A stretch of 64,000 nucleotides of DNA from the NCBI GenBank assembly GCA_016936655.1, contig JAFGXL010000015.1, forward strand, positions 186,001 to 250,000. Reading direction: 5' to 3'. A model generated the notes under the pieces. It saw only the letters and a list, made by a program, of their open reading frames with translations. It was not told where the DNA came from and did not search any database. The stretch comes from Nitrospirota bacterium (GTDB lineage: Bacteria > Nitrospirota > Thermodesulfovibrionia > Thermodesulfovibrionales > Dissulfurispiraceae). Below, in pieces: positions 36,450 to 57,918 of this stretch; position 1 is the stretch's first letter; every line of letters starts with the position of its first letter. Both the position numbers and the translations under genes were made by a program.

Positions 36450-37025
36450 TTAGGCAGGATAGTTAAATTGATAATATTCTGGATTACTTAACATATCACC
36501 ATAAATGAACCAGCTATCTTGTGTTTCATCAAGTGCACCAAATATCCAGAGTTGCGCAATATTCAATTTTTGCACTTCTATTGCATTAAACTCGAGTCTT
36601 ATTTCTTTGTTCAGGTGAATAGCGACGACCAAATTACTCGACGATGAATATTTTGCCAATTTTGAAATAGTTTCATTTAAGTTTGATTTGCTATTCAACT
36701 TTTCAGAAACTACCTCTTTGAGCTGAACAGGCGTATAGTGCAGGACATCATCTCTTTTAAAATAAGTCACAAAGTCGTAATCAACATCTTCACAATTAGC
36801 AAAGTAAATTTTTTCGCCTACAACCGCCTGACTTAACCCATAACTGAATAGAGCCGCTTCTCGACCTTCCCGATATAATTTTTGCTTATTTCGCCGCAAT
36901 GTTTTTGCTGTATCATCTAAATCGCTATATCCTGCCAAGTCTTCTAATTTTCTATATTCCTTTAGAATCTCCTCAAAATCATAATATTGATATTTCCCCC
37001 ATTTATTTAGTTCTATTGTCTCCAT
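36450..37025 (-). CDS. orphan protein with nuclease-like DxD...QLK motif
   Basis: 191 residues, not recognised as a family. Residues about 80-115 read CEDVDYDFVTYFKRDDVLHYTPVQLKEVV. The acidic residues followed by a strand ending in QLK resemble the PD-(D/E)XK core (Q-x-K variant) of restriction or repair nucleases. This is inference from one motif. It is more AT-rich than its neighbours and lies alone in an islet with HicAB, which suggests acquisition by transfer. No partner methylase is present. Confidence 0.45.
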   Translation of the reverse strand: METIELNKWGKYQYYDFEEILKEYRKLEDLAGYSDLDDTAKTLRRNKQKLYREGREAALFSYGLSQAVVGEKIYFANCEDVDYDFVTYFKRDDVLHYTPVQLKEVVSEKLNSKSNLNETISKLAKYSSSSNLVVAIHLNKEIRLEFNAIEVQKLNIAQLWIFGALDETQDSWFIYGDMLSNPEYYQFNYPA

Positions 37026-37175: not shown

Positions 37176-37205
37176 TTGCTTTGTCGTTATTCCCTATGAT
37201 ATATT
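37176..37205 (+). promoter_or_regulatory. promoter of the DUF364-ABC-porin operon
   Basis: TTGCTT (37176-37181) and TATATT (37200-37205) lie 18 bp apart and have the same internal layout as the modE promoter. The leader of about 55 nt contains GCCGG/CCGGC (37217-37221/37238-37242) before the AGGAGGAACACAA ribosome site. Confidence 0.6.
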
Positions 37206-37208
37206 ACG
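37185..37208 (+). promoter_or_regulatory. ModE-box-like operator in the DUF364 operon promoter
   Basis: CGTTATTCCC-N5-TATATTACG. The outer 8-mers CGTTATTC and ATATTACG are imperfect inverted halves of CGTTATAT/ATATAACG with an 8-bp gap, like the ModE box as I remember it. All 18 fixed bases of CGTTATTCCC-N5-TATATTAC recur in the modE promoter at 44678-44700. It covers the spacer and -10, so binding would repress. Confidence 0.65.
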
Positions 37209-37265: not shown

Positions 37266-37991
37266 ATGAAGATATATTCAGATCTTAAATCAAAGTTCAA
37301 CAGCATGGCGCAGCAGCATAACCTCCTCGATAAAGAGGTTACGGTTGTCTCAGCGCGCACGTTAACACCTGAAGAGGCGATCGGGAAACCTGACATAAAA
37401 GACTTCCCTCTGCTCAAGGGCAAAGAGGTGATGATAGAGGCTGCATTCAATGGCGCAAAAGGCCAGGCATATACAGATATGCCAGGCAGCTTTAGCGGAT
37501 CTATCAAGGATGTTGCAAACCTGCCACTGACAAATAGCTTTCAGAGAGCTGTATTTATATCAACACTTAATGCCGTTATGCGAAGCCTCGGACTTGCAGG
37601 CAAAACTGTCCATTGCAGAGATAAAGAGCCGGCAGAATGCGCTTCTCAGCTAACAAAATATATAAAAGAATTCATGCCGAATCCAAAGATTGCCTTCGTC
37701 GGATATCAGCCGGCAATGATATCAAGACTTGTAGAATCATTCGAAATAAGAGTCGTTGATCTGGATACTGACAATATAGGCAAGGAAAAGTTCGGCATTA
37801 TGGTTGAAGGCCCAGAAAAGACAGATGAGCTACTTAAGTGGGGAGATATCATAATGGCTACAGGCTCAACATCAGTAAACGGCACTGTTACAAAGTTCAT
37901 TACAGAAAAACCAGTAATCTTCTATGGCATAACAATATCTGGAGTAGCCAGCATTTTTGGTTACAAAAACTACTGTCCATGCGGTCACTAA
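37266..37991 (+). CDS. DUF364 putative heavy-metal-chelation-domain protein
   Basis: 241 residues. An N-terminal domain (about 1-85, enolase-N-like, with FNGAKGQAYTDMPGSFSGSI) precedes a Rossmann-like DUF364 domain (about 90-235) containing NPKIAFVGYQPAMISRLVE, DIIMATGSTSVNGTV and a C-terminal CPCGH. Members of this family are soluble and proposed to bind metals or a metal chelate; the biochemistry is unknown. It is first in an operon with a binding protein, permease, ATPase and porin. Its promoter shares an operator with modE-modABC, pointing to molybdenum or tungsten. Confidence 0.8.
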   Translation: MKIYSDLKSKFNSMAQQHNLLDKEVTVVSARTLTPEEAIGKPDIKDFPLLKGKEVMIEAAFNGAKGQAYTDMPGSFSGSIKDVANLPLTNSFQRAVFISTLNAVMRSLGLAGKTVHCRDKEPAECASQLTKYIKEFMPNPKIAFVGYQPAMISRLVESFEIRVVDLDTDNIGKEKFGIMVEGPEKTDELLKWGDIIMATGSTSVNGTVTKFITEKPVIFYGITISGVASIFGYKNYCPCGH

Positions 37992-37998
37992 AGCATAT

Positions 37999-39015
37999 AT
38001 GAATATAAGAACAATTTCACTTAATATAGTTTTATTTATCCTTACGTTTTCTATATTTGCAGATCATTGTCTGTCAGCACAAAAAGATATTAAAGACAAA
38101 AAAACACTCAATATGGCTGTTGAATACACAAACCATGCTGCAGCATTCTACTACGCAGAGGGCAAAGGACTATTCAGAAAAGCCGACATATCAATAAACG
38201 AAATAAAAGTATACACGAGCGGAGTGGGAGTTGCTGTAGCCTTCACAAAAGGAAGCTTTGATGCAGGATATATGTGCCTGGTGCCAGCGATATTTACCTA
38301 CGCAAACGGCGGTGTACCGATAAAAATATTGGCAGGTACCCATAAAGACGGATATGGACTGGTTGTAAATTCAGAAAAGATAAAAACAATAAAAGATCTC
38401 GAAAAAACCAATATCAAGATAGCAAACGGACCAAAAGGCACAACAACAGATTTTCTCCAGATGCTTATGATGAAAAAAAACAAACTCAATACCGAAGCAA
38501 TCCTATCCAGAACATTAAGGATGAGCGCATCAAAACAGCTTATGGCCCTGCAAAGCCGTAGAGTTGATGCAGTCTTTGTACCGGAGCATTTTGCGACACT
38601 GGCAGCATCATTCCCCGGAATGAAGATGCTTCTAAAGAGTACGGAGATATGGCCAGATATGCAAGGAAGCGTACTGGTTGTAACTAAAGATATGATCAGA
38701 AATCATCCGGACCTAGTAAAGAAACTCAAAAGAGTAAACAGCCAGAGCATAAAGCTGATTAACAAAAATCGTTTTGAGGCAGCTAATATTTTTGCTCGCA
38801 GTATTAACAGCAGCTCCAGCATGATTGAGAATAAGTCAAAGGATTCTCCAATAACTACCATTCTCTCAGCAGAGCTTGCGGCTGAATCTACAGGAAACAT
38901 GAGAATGACTCCTGATATAACAAGAAAAGATGTCCAGGATGTTATAGACAAGATGTATGAACTTGGCTACCTGCGCAAATCGTTCGATGCAGCCGAAATT
39001 ATGGCTGACGAATAA
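37999..39015 (+). CDS. NMT1/SsuA-like ABC substrate-binding protein
   Basis: 338 residues from the ATG at 37999; the in-frame ATG at 37957 lies inside DUF364 and would spoil the signal peptide (residues 1-26, ending CLSAQ). The mature part has the type-II periplasmic fold of the NitT/TauT group: MAVEYTNHAAAFYYAEGKGLFRKADISINE and IKIANGPKGTTTDFLQMLM. It ends with a helix pair reading DVQDVIDKMYELGYLRK. It presents a ligand to the following permease. The ligand is unknown; a small organic molecule or metal chelate would fit. Confidence 0.8.
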   Translation: MNIRTISLNIVLFILTFSIFADHCLSAQKDIKDKKTLNMAVEYTNHAAAFYYAEGKGLFRKADISINEIKVYTSGVGVAVAFTKGSFDAGYMCLVPAIFTYANGGVPIKILAGTHKDGYGLVVNSEKIKTIKDLEKTNIKIANGPKGTTTDFLQMLMMKKNKLNTEAILSRTLRMSASKQLMALQSRRVDAVFVPEHFATLAASFPGMKMLLKSTEIWPDMQGSVLVVTKDMIRNHPDLVKKLKRVNSQSIKLINKNRFEAANIFARSINSSSSMIENKSKDSPITTILSAELAAESTGNMRMTPDITRKDVQDVIDKMYELGYLRKSFDAAEIMADE

Positions 39016-39767
39016 TGAGAAACTTTACTAAAATCGAAAAGCTGACCAGCCTGACTCCTGTTGCAATTTTTCTGCTGCTATGGGAAGCTGCAGGGCATTT
39101 TGCACATACGCCGCTATTTCCACCGTTATCAAAAGTTCTTAATGAATTTTATCAGCTAACAATAGACGGAACAATTTTAAAAAACCTTGGGGCAAGTTTC
39201 TTTCGAGTACTATCAGGATATATTTTAGGGTCAGTTCTCGGAATAATTGCAGGCATCCTCATGTCTACAAACCGCATTTTTAAAAAAAGCCTGAGCCCTA
39301 TTATAAGCATGTTCCTGCCAATTCCTACACTCGGATGGCTGCCGCTGCTTATGTTGTGGATAGGCATTAACGAGGCCTTGCCCATAACACTAATATTCAT
39401 ATGTGCGTTTTTCCCCGTGGCATACAATACATATACCGGAATTGATGGAGTAAGACCAGGATATGCTAAAGTCGCAAAAACTCTGGGTGCATCGCGCTGG
39501 TTTATACTCCGTCGCGTAATGCTGCCTATGGCAGCTCCTAATATATTCACAGGACTAAGGCTAGAATCAGGCATGGTATGGCGCACTGTAATTGCAGCGG
39601 AGATGTTCGCAATACCTACAGGCGTTGGTGCAATGCTATTTAACGCAGAATCCATCATACGCGTTGACATCATAATGTGCTGCCTTATAGCGCTCTCTTT
39701 GATGTGCACATTGTTTGAGCGCACACTTATATGGGCTGAAGACATGATAACGTCAGCATGGAGGTGA
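39015..39767 (+). CDS. NitT/TauT-type ABC permease
   Basis: 250 residues, six helices. The ABC permease EAA loop reads YAKVAKTLGASRWFILRRVMLPMAAPNIFTGLRLESGMVWRTVIAAEMF, close to SsuC/TauC. It starts on the last base of the binding protein's stop (TAATG), and its own stop overlaps the ribosome site of the ATPase gene, showing tight coupling in the operon. Confidence 0.87.
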   Translation: MRNFTKIEKLTSLTPVAIFLLLWEAAGHFAHTPLFPPLSKVLNEFYQLTIDGTILKNLGASFFRVLSGYILGSVLGIIAGILMSTNRIFKKSLSPIISMFLPIPTLGWLPLLMLWIGINEALPITLIFICAFFPVAYNTYTGIDGVRPGYAKVAKTLGASRWFILRRVMLPMAAPNIFTGLRLESGMVWRTVIAAEMFAIPTGVGAMLFNAESIIRVDIIMCCLIALSLMCTLFERTLIWAEDMITSAWR

Positions 39768-39769
39768 AG

Positions 39770-40468
39770 ATGCCAAACATCAGACTACAGAATGTATCAA
39801 CCGCCTACTGTCTTAACAATATCAATCTCGATGTCAGATCAGGAGAGTTTTTGGTGATGCTCGGATCTACAGGAGCGGGCAAGAGTACGCTTCTTAATGT
39901 TATATCAGGCCTAGATCAGTATACAGGAGACATATATTTTAATAATCAGAATATAAACAGCATACCAGCCTCAAAACGCGGAGCTGGATATTTAATGCAG
40001 GAGATATTTCTATTTCCACACATGACTATTTTTGAAAATGTAACATTCGGACTCAGAGCTTTATCAATGCCCAGACAGCTGGTTGCAGAAAAAACTCAAG
40101 ACATTCTGGATATGCTCAGAATATCACATCTGAAAAACCGCTATCCGAAAAATCTCAGCGGAGGTGAAAAACAGAGAGCTGGTCTGGCGCGTTCACTCGT
40201 TACAGAACCGACCATATTACTTCTTGACGAACCTCTAAGCAGTCTGGACAGCACTACAGCTGATCAGATACATAACGAGCTCCTTAGACTTCATAAGCGC
40301 CTGAATCTGACTATCCTTTATGTGACTCATAATCTTATGGAAGCCAGAAAGCTGGCTGACAGAATTGTTGTAATAAGTGGAGGCAGAGTCACAAGATCGT
40401 TCGATCCAGAAGAGATCCTAAGCAACGATCCAGCAGCTGCCAATAACCTTATATATTCATCAATCTAA
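39770..40468 (+). CDS. NitT/TauT-type ABC ATPase
   Basis: 232 residues from the ATG at 39770, picked because GGAGGTGAAG lies directly before it; the ATG at 39758 precedes that site. Walker A GSTGAGKST, Q-loop LMQEIFLFPHMTIFENV, signature NLSGGEKQRAG and Walker B ILLLDEPLSSLD are intact, with switch His in YVTHN. No C-terminal regulatory domain. It drives the preceding permease. Confidence 0.88.
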   Translation: MPNIRLQNVSTAYCLNNINLDVRSGEFLVMLGSTGAGKSTLLNVISGLDQYTGDIYFNNQNINSIPASKRGAGYLMQEIFLFPHMTIFENVTFGLRALSMPRQLVAEKTQDILDMLRISHLKNRYPKNLSGGEKQRAGLARSLVTEPTILLLDEPLSSLDSTTADQIHNELLRLHKRLNLTILYVTHNLMEARKLADRIVVISGGRVTRSFDPEEILSNDPAAANNLIYSSI

Positions 40469-40489
40469 ACCAAGGAACGTATACTCGCC

Positions 40490-41875
40490 ATGCTAAAGAA
40501 AACATCAAAGCGCCTCTGTATTTTCGCGCTGTTTCTATGCTCAATCACTATTTATGCGCCTATGCAGTCCGAGTCAGCAACACAAGAGTTGTCAAAACCA
40601 AGACTTATATTCAGCGCTGCGCTGCGTACAAGATATGAGTCCCAGCATAATTTCAGCCAGAAATACTATGGCATCAATCAACCCGCAGGCAAATCGGATG
40701 ACAGTTTTTTGCTATATAGAATCAGAGCAGGTCTAGACTGGCATCCGTCAAAAAAAACTCATTTGGCCTTATGGATGCAGCATGCTGATGTCTTGGGATA
40801 CGAACTGCCTGACTCAGCATTTTACAACAACGCCTTCAAACATACCGACCATCCTCATAAAGACAGGTTTGAGCTATATCAAACATTTATCGAGACAAAG
40901 GATATTATGCACACGGGTATAAGCCTGAAGGCAGGCCGCCAGAAAATATCATATGCAGACAATAGGGTATTTGGACCTGGAGAGTGGGGCAACTCAGGCA
41001 GATGGGTATGGGATGCGCTAAAAACATCCTGGTCATTCAAGCATGGATTTCTTGACCTGTTTTACGGTAAAACCATGCTGCATGAAATAGATCAGTTCAG
41101 CCTTGGTCATCGTCACGGCTATGAAAGCATAGGCATGTATGGACATGTAAATGTTTTAAAAAATCCTGTTAACCTCATTGTAGAACCGATGCTATTCACT
41201 AAAAAAGATAATCACCAAAACTATACGGGAGAGCTGAACAAGACTCCCGGAAAGCTCGACTCATGGTATTTAGGCGCCAGAACCCATGCATCACTCAGAA
41301 ATTGGGAGCTTGGAGCAACATTCATACAGGAAAAAGGCAGCTTTGGCGCTGACAAGATCAATGCGTATGGATATCACATCATGGCAGCCTACACAGTTCC
41401 GCACGACTGGAAGCCTCGTTTATGCGCAGCTTACAGTTATGCATCAGGAGACAGCAATCCTGCTGACGGCAAAAATGAAACATTTCATGAAGCATTTGGA
41501 GCCAAGGATATGTTCTACGGAAGAATGAATCTTTTTTCGTGGAGCAACCTGAAAGACTACGAAATCAGCATGACCATAAATCCATACGCATGGCTCACAA
41601 TAAAAGGCGAGGCTCACAAGTTTAAACTTGCTGACAAACATGACGGATGGTCTCTAAATTCAAAAACATACCGCGACAAAACTGTCAGCAGCGGGGAGAG
41701 CGTAGGCAAAGAGCTCGATCTTGTAATATCTTGCAGATATTCTAATAACCACACATTAATGGCAGGATTTGGCCGCTTCTGGCCTGATGAATTCGCTAAA
41801 AATATGGCATCATCAAAACAGGCATCATGGGTCTTTCTGCAATGGGAATACAGATTCAGCAAGTCGCTGCTGTGA
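40490..41875 (+). CDS. alginate-export-family outer-membrane beta-barrel (AlgE-like porin)
   Basis: 461 residues with a signal peptide (about 1-30, SESATQ). The mature protein alternates polar and hydrophobic residues in many strands. It carries the family signature GRQKISYADNRVFGPGEWGNSGRWVWDALK, and ends in an aromatic strand WVFLQWEYRF, the type of C-terminus recognised by the BAM machinery. Named for alginate export, the family includes many porins for unknown solutes. As the last gene of the DUF364/ABC operon it probably supplies the outer-membrane route for that importer's ligand. Confidence 0.8.
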   Translation: MLKKTSKRLCIFALFLCSITIYAPMQSESATQELSKPRLIFSAALRTRYESQHNFSQKYYGINQPAGKSDDSFLLYRIRAGLDWHPSKKTHLALWMQHADVLGYELPDSAFYNNAFKHTDHPHKDRFELYQTFIETKDIMHTGISLKAGRQKISYADNRVFGPGEWGNSGRWVWDALKTSWSFKHGFLDLFYGKTMLHEIDQFSLGHRHGYESIGMYGHVNVLKNPVNLIVEPMLFTKKDNHQNYTGELNKTPGKLDSWYLGARTHASLRNWELGATFIQEKGSFGADKINAYGYHIMAAYTVPHDWKPRLCAAYSYASGDSNPADGKNETFHEAFGAKDMFYGRMNLFSWSNLKDYEISMTINPYAWLTIKGEAHKFKLADKHDGWSLNSKTYRDKTVSSGESVGKELDLVISCRYSNNHTLMAGFGRFWPDEFAKNMASSKQASWVFLQWEYRFSKSLL

Positions 41876-41882
41876 TAAATTC

Positions 41883-42629
41883 TTATGAATTCAAATTGAG
41901 AACTCTTGAGGAATACCCAGCGCACTGATTCAGATAAGACTGCAGAGCAACATATTCCGGATCAGCAATTATTTCTGCAGGAGCGCCTGTCTTCATAACA
42001 TTGCCGTTGGAATAAATAATTATATTGTCAGCTAGATCGCATGCCTCTGCAAAATCGTGGGTAACGAGCACAACAGGCACATTAAACTCTGATCTCATAT
42101 CTTTCAGAAATGCGCGCATCTCAACTCTGAGCGGTGTGTCGAGAGCTGAAAACGGCTCATCCAGCAGCAGCATCTCCGGTCTGCGTATGAGAGCCCGAGC
42201 AAACGCTACGCGCTGCTTCTGCCCGCCTGATATTTCCGAAGGCATTTTATCATGCAATGCAGCTATCTGGAATCTCTTCATAAGATCTTCACAGCGTCCG
42301 GCTGCTTCATCATGATTAAGCCCTTTTGCGCCAAAGAGTATGTTTTCCCGCACCTTCATATGCGGGAAAAGCGCAAGGTCCTGGAATACATAACCACAAT
42401 GGCGCATCTGTGGAGGAATATTTAAATTACTCTTACTGTCAAAATATGCATTGCCGGCAGAAAAAACATACCCTATATCTGGCCTGATTAGTCCGGCTAT
42501 CATCTTAAGAGTAAGAGATTTGCCTGCGCCTGAAGGACCAAATAGCACAGCAAACTCTTTTCCTATCTTCCATTTCACATCCAGAGTAAAGCCATTCACC
42601 TTTTTGTAGAGCGATATATCCAGACCCAT
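41883..42629 (-). CDS. modC: molybdate-type ABC ATPase ModC, short form
   Basis: 248 residues. Walker A GPSGAGKS, Q-loop VFQDLALFPHMKVREN, signature EISGGQKQRVAFARAL, Walker B MLLLDEPFSALD and switch VTHDF are complete. It stops soon after the ATPase fold, so the C-terminal TOBE (molybdate-sensing) domain of the roughly 350-residue E. coli ModC is missing. It overlaps modB (TGATG). Its 3' end lies 8 nt from that of the convergent porin gene. Confidence 0.88.
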   Translation of the reverse strand: MGLDISLYKKVNGFTLDVKWKIGKEFAVLFGPSGAGKSLTLKMIAGLIRPDIGYVFSAGNAYFDSKSNLNIPPQMRHCGYVFQDLALFPHMKVRENILFGAKGLNHDEAAGRCEDLMKRFQIAALHDKMPSEISGGQKQRVAFARALIRRPEMLLLDEPFSALDTPLRVEMRAFLKDMRSEFNVPVVLVTHDFAEACDLADNIIIYSNGNVMKTGAPAEIIADPEYVALQSYLNQCAGYSSRVLNLNS

Positions 42630-43294
42630 CAGATAATCCTCTTACTGTATTTGTTGGCAACATATAGAAAAACAACCGACATGAGCGTAAGCAGCAGCAC
42701 CATCATATTTGCGCTCTTCCAATCGCCGCTGCTTGCAGCGGAATATATCGCAAGCGGCATTGTATCTGTTACGCCCGGCAGATTGCCCGCAATCATTAGT
42801 GTGGCGCCAAATTCTCCAAGCGCACGCGCAAAAGAGAGTACAGCTCCGGCAATAATGCCTTTTCTGGCGAGCGGAAAAATAACCTTAAGCGCGGTCTCGA
42901 ATCTAGATCTGCCGAGAGTATAAGATGCATCAATAAAGTTTTTATCAACAGACTCTATCGCTGCTCTCGTTGTTTTTATCATAAGCGGAAGCGACACAAC
43001 AAATGAAGCCAGCACAGCAGCATACCATGTGAACATGATTGTCCAGCCTGTCCATTCATAAATCATGCTGCCTATAAACCCGTTTCTGCCAAATAGGATA
43101 ATAAGATAATAGCCGGTTACCGTAGGAGGCAAAACAAGCGGAAGCGTAAACAGAATATCAACAAGCTCCTTACCCCTAAAATGCTTTGCGGCAAGCAGAT
43201 ATGCAATAAATACCCCGGCGATTACCACAAAAAATGTAGTAACCGAAGCAACCTGGAGTGAAAGCTTCATAGAAAATAATACTTTGCTATCCAT
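42629..43294 (-). CDS. modB: molybdate ABC transporter permease ModB
   Basis: 221 residues, about five helices. The permease EAA loop FIDASYTLGRSRFETALKVIFPLARKGIIAGAVLSFARALGEFGATLMIAGNLPGVTDTMPLAIY is characteristic of ModB. ATG 43294 is preferred to the adjacent TTG at 43297; AGGTGGTTG precedes it. It forms the channel for ModA-delivered oxyanion. Confidence 0.92.
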   Translation of the reverse strand: MDSKVLFSMKLSLQVASVTTFFVVIAGVFIAYLLAAKHFRGKELVDILFTLPLVLPPTVTGYYLIILFGRNGFIGSMIYEWTGWTIMFTWYAAVLASFVVSLPLMIKTTRAAIESVDKNFIDASYTLGRSRFETALKVIFPLARKGIIAGAVLSFARALGEFGATLMIAGNLPGVTDTMPLAIYSAASSGDWKSANMMVLLLTLMSVVFLYVANKYSKRII

Positions 43295-43338
43295 CAACCA
43301 CCTGCCTGTTTTTATACCTGCAAATCAACAATGCTCTG

Positions 43339-44115
43339 CTACTTCATTTCTGAGGGCAGCACAAACCCGTATTTTTTCATTATCTGCCGCCCTTTTGGGC
43401 TGTTCACATAATTAGCGAACTCTATAGCCTGCTTTTTATTCTTTGTGCTTTTTATTACTGCCATAGCTTGCTCAATCGAGTTATGCAGCTCTTCTGGAAT
43501 CAGACTGAACTCTGTTTTTGATCCAATGCTGACAGACAATGCCACTATACCTGCATCTACATTGCCGGTCTCAACATAATCAAGAGCCTGCCGAACAGTT
43601 TCACCCATAACGATCTTGTGCTTGACCGCATCCCATACACCAGCTTTCTGCATAGCCTCTTTAGCAGCAAGTCCGTAAGGAGCATGGCCAGGATTTGCTA
43701 TCGCTATTCTTTTGATTCTTGGATCTAATAAATCTTTTATAAAATTTAATTTTGCGGTTCCCTTGGGAGTTGCAAGAGTTATTCTCCCTACTGCATAAAG
43801 CGTTTTAGTCTCAGGATGTATCAAACCTTTAGCTTGCAGCCCATCAATATAACTCTTGTTTGCAGCAAAAAAAAGATCCACTGGAGCCCCGGCTTCGATC
43901 TGCTTAGCCGCCATGCCTGTAGATCCAAAATTAAATATAACCTTGTTGCCGGTCTCCTTTTCGTAAAAGCCTCCAATCTCTTTAAATGCCTTAATCAGAT
44001 CAGCTGCTGCTGAAACTATAATGCCCTTTGAATCCTTTGCATGCAAATCCATCGGCACTGCAATTAGACCGAGAATAACTAAGAAAAAGCCAACTCCATA
44101 AAGTATTCTTTTCAT
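43339..44115 (-). CDS. modA: molybdate-binding periplasmic protein ModA
   Basis: 258 residues with a signal peptide (about 1-26, DLHAKD). Ligand loops follow the ModA pattern: VSAAADLIKAFKEIG, NFGSTGMAAKQIEAGAPVDLFFAANKSYIDGL and IANPGHAPYGLAAKEAM. It binds molybdate or tungstate in the periplasm. Its ATG overlaps the modE stop (ATGA), so the regulator and the transporter are translated together. Confidence 0.93.
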   Translation of the reverse strand: MKRILYGVGFFLVILGLIAVPMDLHAKDSKGIIVSAAADLIKAFKEIGGFYEKETGNKVIFNFGSTGMAAKQIEAGAPVDLFFAANKSYIDGLQAKGLIHPETKTLYAVGRITLATPKGTAKLNFIKDLLDPRIKRIAIANPGHAPYGLAAKEAMQKAGVWDAVKHKIVMGETVRQALDYVETGNVDAGIVALSVSIGSKTEFSLIPEELHNSIEQAMAVIKSTKNKKQAIEFANYVNSPKGRQIMKKYGFVLPSEMK

Positions 44116-44543
44116 TTTTTCTCCTTTTTAAATGGCAGCTTCTGCAGCTCTTTGTCTAGAAACTTGGAAAAGCTCTTGTGCAGCTGCCAAAAATATCTGA
44201 TCGCATCCTCGCCCGACCTTGTCACAACAGCTCCTCCACCGCCCTTGCCGCCTGTGGATGTTGTAACAAGAGGCTCCTGCGCCTGGCTGTTCATCGACTC
44301 TACAAGCTCCCAGGCATTTCTGTAAGACATTCCCATGGACCTTGCAGCCTCTGTTATGGAGCCATGCTCTTTAATCCTTTCAAGCAATACGACTCTACCG
44401 TAGCCTATAAATGTGCCGCCATCGCCCTCTATCCATATACGACCCCTTACAGAATATCCAGCCCCTGATGCAGCTGCCTCTTCAGTCCTCAACTCATCTG
44501 CACTGCGGCCCATCTGTATGTCTGGCGCGGTTCTCTTTTTCAT
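44112..44543 (-). CDS. modE: ModE-type winged-helix regulator lacking the molybdate-binding domain
   Basis: 143 residues. After a variable N-terminus (1-30), residues about 45-125 form the LysR-like ModE DNA-binding domain: LLERIKEHGSITEAARSMGMSYRNAWELVESMN, then LVTTSTGGKGGGGAVVTRSGE, the ModE wing signature. The C-terminal di-MOP molybdate-binding part of E. coli ModE is absent. It probably binds the shared operator in its own promoter and in that of the DUF364 operon. A hairpin ending in a T-run directly precedes its ATG. Confidence 0.88.
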   Translation of the reverse strand: MKKRTAPDIQMGRSADELRTEEAAASGAGYSVRGRIWIEGDGGTFIGYGRVVLLERIKEHGSITEAARSMGMSYRNAWELVESMNSQAQEPLVTTSTGGKGGGGAVVTRSGEDAIRYFWQLHKSFSKFLDKELQKLPFKKEKK

Positions 44544-44673: not shown

Positions 44674-44677
44674 AATG

Positions 44678-44700
44678 GTAATATATACTCGGGAATAACG
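44678..44700 (-). promoter_or_regulatory. ModE-box-like operator in the modE-modABC promoter
   Basis: On the minus strand, CGTTATTCCC-N5-TATATTAC. It is identical at all 18 fixed positions to 37185-37207 and placed the same way between -35 and -10. The 14-bp ACCAT-TATG-ATGGT around the transcription start (44667-44680) is a second small inverted repeat. Confidence 0.65.
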
Positions 44701-56853: not shown

Positions 56854-57156
56854 TTTGCCTCCTAATCTGTTTTTCTATATTAACATACACCTATACGGCA
56901 GCACAGCTTCATGTATTATTAAACTATACCCTTTCTCTTCTACCTAGTCTTTTTAATCTTCAACTATACCTCCATTTCACATCAGCCTATATTACAATTT
57001 GCTGTAAATAGTTATTTATATTTACTGATTTACTTTTTCTTAACATCTCTGTTAATATATTCACAATCAGCTAACCTGCAACAGCGACATACCAAGCTTT
57101 TGCAACCTATTAATAGCTTCCATTTTAACCAGCTTTTTCAAAGGAGACAATATATT
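56854..57156. other. AT-rich divergent intergenic region (303 bp) with an inverted repeat
   Basis: It separates the ferredoxin gene from the TupA-like gene and must hold both promoters. GTAAATA (57004-57010) and TATTTAC (57019-57025) form a 7-bp inverted repeat with 8-bp gap, a possible operator. I found no ORF with a signal peptide in any frame that could complete the TupA-like gene, and the ModE-like motif is not present here. Confidence 0.5.
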
Positions 57157-57918
57157 ATGCTAAAGCTCGCCTCAACAATAGGGGCAGTTGACGCAGGAAT
57201 TGTAGACAAGCTTAAAAACGCTTTCAACCAAAAAACAGGCGTATCGGTTGAATATGTCGCTGCAGGATCTGAAAAAGCTCTTCAGCTCGCTCAAAGCGGA
57301 CAATACGACCTTGTGCTTGTACATGCGAAGCAGCTTGAAGAAAAATTTATTGAGCAAGGTTTTGGCACAAAACGATATGATCTGATGTATAACGATTTTG
57401 TAATTCTCGGATCGCCGCATGATCCATCCGGCATCAGCATATCAAAAAATGCTGCATCCGCATTTAAACAAATTGCAAAAAAACAGGCTCCTTTTATCAC
57501 AAGAGGAGACAACTCCGGAACACATATAAAAGAACTCGAGATATGGAACAGGGCAGGCATAACTCCAGTCGGTGCATGGCATATTATTTCTGATTATGGA
57601 TCAAAAAGCACTACTGCCACACTATTAGACGCAGACAGTAAGCAGGCATACACTATAATAGACAGGTCGACATACATACCAATTAAATCAAAGATCAAGC
57701 TGCAGGTTTTAGTTGAAAAAGATGATCTGCTCCTGAACTATATAACCCTGATACCTGTCAACCCTGCTAAATTTCCGCAAGTAAACTATAACGCTGCAAT
57801 GAAGTTTATCGAATGGCTGCAGAGCAAAGAAGCCCAAATCATCATTCGCGACTTTGGCAAAAAAAAATATGGAGAGCCGCTGTTTTTCCCAAACTCTCCT
57901 GAAGGCAGAAAACTTTAA
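57157..57918 (+). CDS. TupA-like tungstate-binding protein lacking a signal peptide
   Basis: 253 residues from the ATG at 57157 (AAGGAG at 57141-57146). A TTG at 57100 would add 19 polar residues, still no signal. The sequence begins where mature TupA begins: LASTIGAVDAGIVDKLKNAFNQKTGVSVEYVAAGSEKALQLAQSGQYDLVLVHAKQLEEKF (broken here only by family numbering), then RYDLMYNDFVILG and FITRGDNSGTHIKELEIW, the oxyanion-site loops. No permease or ATPase follows. It may be a cytoplasmic molybdate/tungstate store or sensor. Confidence 0.75.
   Translation: MLKLASTIGAVDAGIVDKLKNAFNQKTGVSVEYVAAGSEKALQLAQSGQYDLVLVHAKQLEEKFIEQGFGTKRYDLMYNDFVILGSPHDPSGISISKNAASAFKQIAKKQAPFITRGDNSGTHIKELEIWNRAGITPVGAWHIISDYGSKSTTATLLDADSKQAYTIIDRSTYIPIKSKIKLQVLVEKDDLLLNYITLIPVNPAKFPQVNYNAAMKFIEWLQSKEAQIIIRDFGKKKYGEPLFFPNSPEGRKL

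What the first reader, a model, noticed from the sequence alone, without database searches (positions are those of the whole stretch)
37266..41875. DUF364 + NMT1-type ABC importer + AlgE-like porin as a possible undescribed molybdenum/tungsten (or metal-chelate) acquisition system
Five genes with overlapping or near-overlapping junctions encode a putative metal-chelation protein, a binding protein of the group for organic ligands, a permease, an ATPase and an outer-membrane barrel. Together they form a complete path from outside to cytosol plus a cytoplasmic protein that may handle the chelate. The operon converges on modABC and shares its operator. I know of no characterised system with this make-up; the substrate is inference.
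Basis: partly seen in the sequence, partly recalled or inferred. Interest (0 to 1): 0.82.

Follow-up and report, generated by a model that had tools for sequence, protein, structure and literature searches.

The report
Candidate new molybdenum or tungsten importer
A five-gene bacterial uptake operon, switched by the same DNA control site as the classic molybdate importer, recurs across distant anaerobes beside molybdenum genes, and so is probably a further, undescribed way for cells to acquire molybdenum or tungsten; what exactly it binds is not yet known.

Summary
Five genes at 37266-41875 encode a DUF364 protein, an NMT1-type binding protein, a permease, an ATPase and an AlgE-like porin, converging on modABC. 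An identical operator precedes both operons. In relatives that operator sits directly upstream of modE, and its geometry is that of the E. coli ModE box.

In 80 related loci from other phyla, DUF364 stands beside either a ModABC-type importer (34, by automatic labelling) or this same NMT1-type importer (18). Exact ModE boxes in these loci number 11 against 0.3 expected, all serving the DUF364 cluster. In Atribacterota, 12 of 12 assessable copies of the binding protein lie next to DUF364, many with selenium/molybdenum-hydroxylase maturation genes. A deltaproteobacterium repeats the layout: modABC, porin, binding protein, permease, with ATPase tail and DUF364 on another contig, and a ModE-box-like site before each operon. 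The host appears to have acquired its operon horizontally.

Best reading: a ModE-controlled importer for a molybdenum (or tungsten) species, outside the three ABC families known in prokaryotes. Substrate form, DUF364's role and porin specificity remain inference. The local ModE lacks a molybdate-sensing domain, so Mo-responsiveness is not shown.

The parts
37185..37208 (+). ModE-box operator of the DUF364 operon, CGTTATTCCCTATGATATATTACG
   Evidence: Exact copy of the operator at 44678-44700; none expected by chance; 9 of 10 specified positions of the E. coli-type box CGNTAT-N12-ATANCG; same core found directly upstream of modE in other genera of the family
37266..37991 (+). DUF364 protein (241 aa), predicted cytosolic, possibly an enzyme or metal/chelate-handling protein
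   Evidence: PF04016 34.8 bits; AlphaFold model pLDDT 91 matches DUF364 crystal structures 3npg Z 16.6 and 3l5o Z 15.4; 178 relatives in one scan
37999..39015 (+). periplasmic binding protein of NMT1/SsuA/TauA type with N-terminal signal sequence
   Evidence: PF13379 64.3 bits; model pLDDT 89.6, TauA Z 30.2, SsuA 29.6, NrtA 29.2, CmpA 28.3; 17 close relatives beside permease and ATPase in other phyla
39015..39767 (+). ABC importer permease, TauC/SsuC/NtrB-like
   Evidence: PF00528 95.3 bits; NCBIfam SaoP 143.7, TauC 134.8, all under their cutoffs
39758..40468 (+). ABC importer ATPase (236 aa, no C-terminal domain)
   Evidence: PF00005 120.5 bits; best NCBIfam match tungstate WtpC 231.7 bits, under cutoff 440
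40490..41875 (+). outer-membrane beta-barrel porin, AlgE-like, with N-terminal signal sequence
   Evidence: PF13372 135.5 bits; 41% identical homologue directly before the same binding protein and permease in a deltaproteobacterium
41883..42629 (-). modC, molybdate importer ATPase (convergent neighbour under the same operator)
   Evidence: NCBIfam modC 213.2 bits, best match but under cutoff 285
42629..43297 (-). modB, molybdate importer permease
   Evidence: NCBIfam modB 249 bits, cutoff 182.6
43339..44115 (-). modA, molybdate-binding protein
   Evidence: NCBIfam modA 219.5 bits, cutoff 62.5
44112..44543 (-). modE, DNA-binding domain only (143 aa, no molybdate-binding MOP domain)
   Evidence: TIGR00637 91.2 bits, cutoff 98.5; Pfam finds only HTH_1
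44677..44700 (-). ModE-box operator of modE-modABC, CGTTATTCCCGAGTATATATTACC, lying inside a promoter-like TTGACA-18-TATATT

Best explanation
This is a ModE-controlled uptake operon for a molybdenum (or tungsten) species, working alongside ModABC. Proposed path: the porin lets the ligand cross the outer membrane; the NMT1-type binding protein captures it in the periplasm; the permease and ATPase import it; the cytosolic DUF364 protein acts on the imported species (for example releasing the metal from a ligand or passing it to cofactor synthesis). ModE, at an operator overlapping the promoter, represses this operon and modABC together. Shown by computation: gene content, shared operator and its identity as the ModE box of the lineage, recurrence of the gene set with ModE boxes in other phyla, and replacement of the importer by a ModABC-type one beside the same DUF364. 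Inferred: the substrate element, its chemical form, the role of DUF364, porin selectivity, and direct ModE binding.
For: Shared exact operator, 0 expected, only two exact sites in the genome. In 31 genomes of the family every site with 0-1 mismatch lies directly upstream of a modE orthologue, save the one before DUF364. Of 80 DUF364 loci in other phyla, 34 carry a ModABC-type and 18 the same NMT1-type importer; sampled neighbouring ModA-type binding proteins pass the NCBIfam modA cutoff. Exact E. coli-type ModE boxes: 11 found, 0.3 expected in shuffles, spacer 12 the clear peak, all before DUF364, its operon, or the Mod genes behind it. Neighbours include ModE (10 loci), a molybdopterin-binding-domain protein (17), XdhC (10), YqeB, YqeC, YedE, SclA-like. 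Searching by binding protein in Atribacterota gave 13 copies; the 12 with visible flank all adjoin DUF364. Deltaproteobacterium G737: modA-modB-modC, then porin (41%)-binding protein (38%)-permease, with ModE-box-like sites before modA and before the porin, and ATPase tail-DUF364 (58%) on a second contig.
Against: No binding or transport data. The local ModE and the related ones nearby lack the molybdate-binding domain, so Mo-responsiveness is inferred. The binding protein's fold relatives bind sulfonates, nitrate, bicarbonate, thiamine and PQQ, none a molybdate. Genomes with this importer can also hold ModABC (window, G737) or WtpABC (G440), so it is not the required molybdate importer there. 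Many Atribacterota copies also sit with selenium genes. Some copies of the importer are not next to DUF364 (G440), and 28 of 80 DUF364 loci have no recognised importer within reach.
Confidence: 0.7

Rival explanations
1. The importer brings in an organic compound used with molybdenum rather than the metal itself: a pterin or other cofactor precursor, or a chelator that DUF364 modifies. ModE controls it because the demand coincides with Mo starvation.
For: NMT1/THI5-type binding proteins often bind organic ligands, including pyrimidines, thiamine and PQQ with or without a lanthanide. The DUF364 crystal-structure paper proposed action on flavin or pterin derivatives. A molybdopterin-binding-domain gene is a common neighbour.
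Against: The same DUF364 is paired more often with ModABC-type oxyanion importers, which suggests that what enters is the metal. The ATPase resembles WtpC more than TauB or SsuB.
Confidence: 0.14
2. The importer serves selenium or sulfur supply for molybdenum hydroxylases (selenite, selenosulfate or a sulfonate), and is merely co-regulated with molybdenum uptake.
For: In Atribacterota the operon carries YedE (putative selenium transporter), an SclA-like desulfurase/lyase, YqeB, YqeC and XdhC. SsuA and TauA are among the closest folds.
Against: Delta and spirochaete loci (L019, L028, L029, L031, L038) and the window carry the importer without these genes nearby, and L019, L029, L038 and the window have ModE boxes there. 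SsuA-family and taurine models score under their cutoffs.
Confidence: 0.08
3. The association with ModE is an accident of insertion next to modABC; the operon imports an unrelated nutrient.
For: The operon is foreign to the host's phylum and sits beside modABC.
Against: The operon has its own operator copy on its far side, and the same combination with ModE genes and boxes recurs in several unrelated phyla, including a modABC-plus-importer replica with two boxes.
Confidence: 0.06

Closest known systems
ModABC molybdate importer
   Same: ModE-box control; pairs with the same DUF364 protein in 34 loci; binding protein, permease, ATPase layout
   Different: Binding protein and permease belong to other families (NMT1_2 and TauC-like); has a porin and DUF364 in the operon
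WtpABC and TupABC tungstate importers
   Same: ABC importers for group 6 metals; ATPase here is closest to WtpC among NCBIfam models
   Different: Binding protein and permease are of other families; no WtpA or TupA match
SsuABC, TauABC, NrtABCD, CmpABCD importers
   Same: Same binding-protein fold and permease family; these bind small anions
   Different: Under family cutoffs; no desulfonation or nitrate genes recognised nearby; ATPase of a different branch; ModE control
DUF364 (PF04016) proteins Dhaf4260 and PH1506
   Same: Same fold and family; their paper already predicted ties to Mo, W, V and Fe transport
   Different: A distinct subfamily (12-21% identity to solved members) with invariant His-Cys (116-117), Cys125 and a C-terminal Cys
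MorABC of Rhodobacter capsulatus
   Same: A second, Mo-repressed importer of unproven substrate beside ModABC
   Different: MorABC is ModABC-like; this one is not
AlgE-like outer-membrane porins (PF13372)
   Same: Porin falls in the family
   Different: No alginate genes seen in the window; co-located with a ModE-controlled importer instead

Membership tests
ModABC molybdate importer | ModA-family binding protein (TIGR01256 over cutoff) | tested here: not met
   No modA match for the binding protein; NMT1_2 64.3 bits instead
ModABC molybdate importer | ModB-family permease | tested here: not met
   24.7 bits against cutoff 182.6
ModABC molybdate importer | control by ModE at a ModE box | tested here: met
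   Operator identity and comparison, (site level only; binding not measured)
WtpABC or TupABC tungstate importer | WtpA or TupA binding protein | tested here: not met
   No match in NCBIfam
SsuABC/TauABC sulfonate importer | SsuA-family or taurine model over cutoff | tested here: not met
   TIGR01728 109.1 bits against 163.5; taurine 22 against 304
SsuABC/TauABC sulfonate importer | binding-protein fold | tested here: met
   TauA Z 30.2 rmsd 2.2 over 275; SsuA Z 29.6 rmsd 2.5 over 279
SsuABC/TauABC sulfonate importer | sulfonate binding | not testable with these tools
   needs purified protein
SaoX/SaoP/SaoA importer (NCBIfam) | equivalog scores over cutoff | tested here: not met
   SaoX 71.3 against 300; SaoP 143.7 against 295; SaoA 147.2 against 360
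DUF364 (PF04016) | profile over gathering score and fold | tested here: met
   34.8 against 23 bits; 3npg Z 16.6, 3l5o Z 15.4
Alginate_exp porin (PF13372) | profile over gathering score | tested here: met
   135.5 against 25.2 bits
Alginate_exp porin (PF13372) | alginate export function | not testable with these tools
   no alginate genes recognised among window ORFs, which were not all annotated
ModE regulator | ModE DNA-binding domain | tested here: inconclusive
   TIGR00637 91.2 bits, just under cutoff 98.5; gene overlaps modA
ModE regulator | C-terminal molybdate-binding MOP domains | tested here: not met
   143 aa, only HTH_1 found; such single-domain ModE proteins are known in Desulfovibrio

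The most novel reading that the evidence does not exclude
A fourth class of prokaryotic Mo/W ABC importer, built on an NMT1-type binding protein, that takes up a form of molybdenum other than plain molybdate (thiomolybdate or a Mo chelate) in sulfidic or Mo-poor anaerobic settings, with its own outer-membrane porin, and with DUF364 as the cytosolic protein that frees or transfers the metal.
Probability: 0.3. Interest if true: 0.82.

Novelty: new variant of a known kind. Interest (0 to 1): 0.63.

Why it matters
A survey of about 5,900 genomes lists only ModABC, WtpABC and TupABC as prokaryotic Mo/W ABC importers, and counts 278 Mo-using bacteria without any known one, concluding that further systems may exist (PMC6147048). 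This operon is a concrete, widely conserved candidate with defined parts and a defined control site. If the binding protein takes thiomolybdate or a chelate, it would answer how anaerobes in sulfidic water, where molybdate turns into thiomolybdate (PMC3528336), obtain the metal. It would also give DUF364, a family of known structure and unknown function, a testable role.

Tried and rejected
Rejected: the operator match as chance (0 in shuffles); the importer as a ModABC, Wtp, Tup, Ssu, Tau or Sao member; recent vertical inheritance, since DUF364, porin and the binding-protein family are otherwise absent from the relatives searched. The PF04016 matches in two other genomes of the phylum are under the cutoff. 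Led nowhere: binding-protein relatives on plasmids (about 25% identical, general NMT1 type); a loose ModE pattern in the window alone, which is no better than chance; total sites scoring 9 or more of 10 in the 80 loci, which do not exceed the reversed-sequence control (33 against 32) - only exact sites and their positions are informative; Rfam, no riboswitch; base composition, GC 0.38-0.44 across the operon with no sharp border. Tried: whether this importer is the only Mo importer in one genome; the dehalococcoid G440 was read contig by contig and has a WtpABC, no ModABC and no TupA hit, so the test was not clean. A search in the phylum of G423 found the binding protein in 1 of 251 genomes, so it is patchy. 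Literature searches found no description of this importer; the library is open-access only. Some tree forks are weak: the importer type changes at least 5 times on the best DUF364 tree but strongly supported branches force only 1.
Full report
WHAT IS THERE. The window lies in an unnamed 1.99-Mb assembly. Five genes on the plus strand, 37266-41875, encode a DUF364 protein, an NMT1-type binding protein, a TauC-like permease, an ATPase and an AlgE-like porin. Junctions are tight: gaps of 7 and 21 nt, overlaps of 1 and 10 nt. The operon converges on modC-modB-modA-modE on the minus strand. ModA and ModB pass their NCBIfam cutoffs; the ModE protein is the DNA-binding domain alone (91.2 bits against 98.5) without a molybdate-binding domain.

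THE OPERATOR. CGTTATTCCCNNNNATATATTAC occurs exactly at 37185-37207 (+) and 44678-44700 (-), with none expected in shuffles, and nowhere else exactly in the genome. In the family (31 genomes) it was found with 0-1 mismatch in six other genomes, in each directly upstream of the modE orthologue. Extended, the window sites read CGTTAT-N12-ATTAC[G/C], the arrangement of the E. coli ModE box CGNTATATA-N6-TATATANCG quoted in PMC545781; one relative (L121) has a perfect E. coli-type box beside modE. At modE the operator lies inside a promoter-like TTGACA-18-TATATT (11 of 12). The DUF364 operator shows the same geometry by eye (TTGCTT-18-TATATT), with a poor first hexamer that the scan did not report. 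Overlap with the promoter suits a repressor; this is inference.

ORIGIN. DUF364 is found in no other of 396 genomes of the phylum by protein search, the porin in no other of 31 genomes of the family, and the binding-protein family nowhere else in the phylum (446 bits here, next best about 108). The operon therefore looks horizontally acquired, yet carries the host's own type of ModE operator.

RELATIVES. A scan of GTDB genomes with a two-sequence DUF364 alignment found 178 relatives; 80 loci were kept, from Deltaproteobacteria, Atribacterota, Moorella and other Clostridia, Dehalococcoidia, spirochaetes and others. By automatic labelling, 34 have a ModABC-type importer beside DUF364 and 18 the same NMT1-type importer; sampled ModA-type proteins pass the modA cutoff. 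On a DUF364 tree the importer type changes at least five times, though only one change is forced by strongly supported branches. That one DUF364 lineage pairs with either importer suggests that both deliver the same element.

NEIGHBOURS. Clusters near DUF364 include a molybdopterin-binding-domain protein (17 loci), XdhC (10), ModE (10), a second DUF364/DUF4213 protein (9), YedE (7), YqeB, YqeC and a cysteine desulfurase/SclA-like protein (6 each). YqeB and YqeC mark selenium-dependent molybdenum hydroxylases (PMC2276186).

MODE BOXES ELSEWHERE. In the 80 loci (0.92 Mb) the exact pattern CG.TAT-N12-ATA.CG occurs 11 times, against a mean of 0.3 in 20 dinucleotide shuffles, and N12 is the clear peak among spacers 4-24. 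The sites precede DUF364 (L009, L017, L029, L032, L038), the operon holding it (L012; and L015, L016, L022, L025, where XdhC comes first) or, in L039, the Mod genes behind DUF364. L029, L038, L015, L016, L022 and L025 carry the NMT1-type importer. Weaker sites (9 of 10) are not enriched overall.

UNBIASED CHECK. Searching Atribacterota with the binding protein instead of DUF364 gave 13 of 50 genomes. In 12 DUF364 is adjacent; the thirteenth starts at a contig end. In dehalococcoid and related loci the order can be ModE, binding protein, permease, ATPase (L153, L156), with DUF364 elsewhere in at least one genome.

A REPLICA. The deltaproteobacterium G737 (Dive96_bin4.212) has modA-modB-modC, then the porin (41% identical), binding protein (38%) and start of the permease; the contig ends there. 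Another contig of the same genome begins with an ATPase tail followed by DUF364 (58%). ModE-box-like sites (9 of 10) precede modA (CGTTATTCCCTCTGGGGTATAATG) and the porin (CGTTATGCCCCAGAGGGTATAACC). That the two contigs are neighbours is inference. This argues that porin and importer belong together and that the pairing with modABC is not a local accident. A porin fragment (44%) also stands divergent to DUF364-ModABC in L007.

STRUCTURE. The binding-protein model (pLDDT 89.6) is of the TauA/SsuA/NrtA/CmpA class (Z 28-30), with PqqT, including a PQQ-gadolinium complex, at Z about 25: a precedent for small anions and for a metal-bound ligand. Across 18 members Glu42, His46, Cys93, His115, Arg174, Glu196, Trp218 and Gln222 are invariant. 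Sequence alignment with TauA puts His46 and Cys93 in the loops corresponding to the TSAEP and GSSP segments of TauA; that these line the pocket is inference. The DUF364 model (pLDDT 91) matches 3npg and 3l5o (Z 16.6 and 15.4); invariant residues include His116-Cys117, Cys125 and Cys237.

HOW IT PROBABLY WORKS. Under molybdenum shortage ModE leaves both operators and ModABC plus this system are made. Porin, binding protein, permease and ATPase bring in a Mo or W species; DUF364 acts on it in the cytosol. Since ModABC is also present, the substrate may be a form that ModABC does not take, such as thiomolybdate or a chelate; no result here decides this. The single-domain ModE leaves open how molybdenum is sensed.

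KNOWN AND NEW. DUF364's link to Mo, W, V and Fe transport was proposed in 2010 (PMC2954201). A survey names only ModABC, WtpABC and TupABC in prokaryotes (PMC6147048). No description of an NMT1-type importer under ModE was found in the open-access library. New here: the importer as a conserved, ModE-linked family across phyla, its exchange with ModABC beside DUF364, and the porin as a recurring partner.

VERDICT. The finding is real and its main idea, a Mo/W acquisition system outside the known families, is well supported by context but untested biochemically. Confidence that the substrate is a Mo or W species: about 0.7.

Noticed in passing
57100-57918: A TupA-like (tungstate-binding) ORF, 167.5 bits against a cutoff of 400, with no evident signal sequence and no TupB or TupC beside it; possibly a remnant or a cytosolic version.
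   Followed up: partly
39758-40468: The window's ATPase is 236 aa, whereas most relatives beside the same permease are about 350 aa with a C-terminal extension (a weak TOBE match in L047); the regulatory part seems lost.
   Followed up: partly
L016:8752-9495 and eight other loci: A second, divergent DUF364/DUF4213 protein often follows the first DUF364 gene in Atribacterota and Dehalococcoidia.
   Followed up: no
L007:2200-3303: TupA-like sequence runs into a truncated porin on the minus strand, next to DUF364-ModABC; looks like a broken or misassembled join.
   Followed up: no
L005:8593-12038 (Dongshaea marina plasmid): DUF364 in a cluster with DUF134, a NifB/NifX-family protein, a thioesterase, a TauE/SafE permease and TrmO; another possible metal context on a mobilizable plasmid.
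   Followed up: no
G000:C32:15761-16075: A second ModE-like DNA-binding protein (32% identical) in the same genome, also present in many relatives.
   Followed up: no
36450-37025: A 191-aa ORF on the minus strand just upstream of the operon with no Pfam match, in a stretch of lower GC (about 0.38).
   Followed up: no
L173-L246 (genome G440): A dehalococcoid genome with WtpABC and the ModE-linked NMT1 importer but no ModABC or TupA hit.
   Followed up: partly
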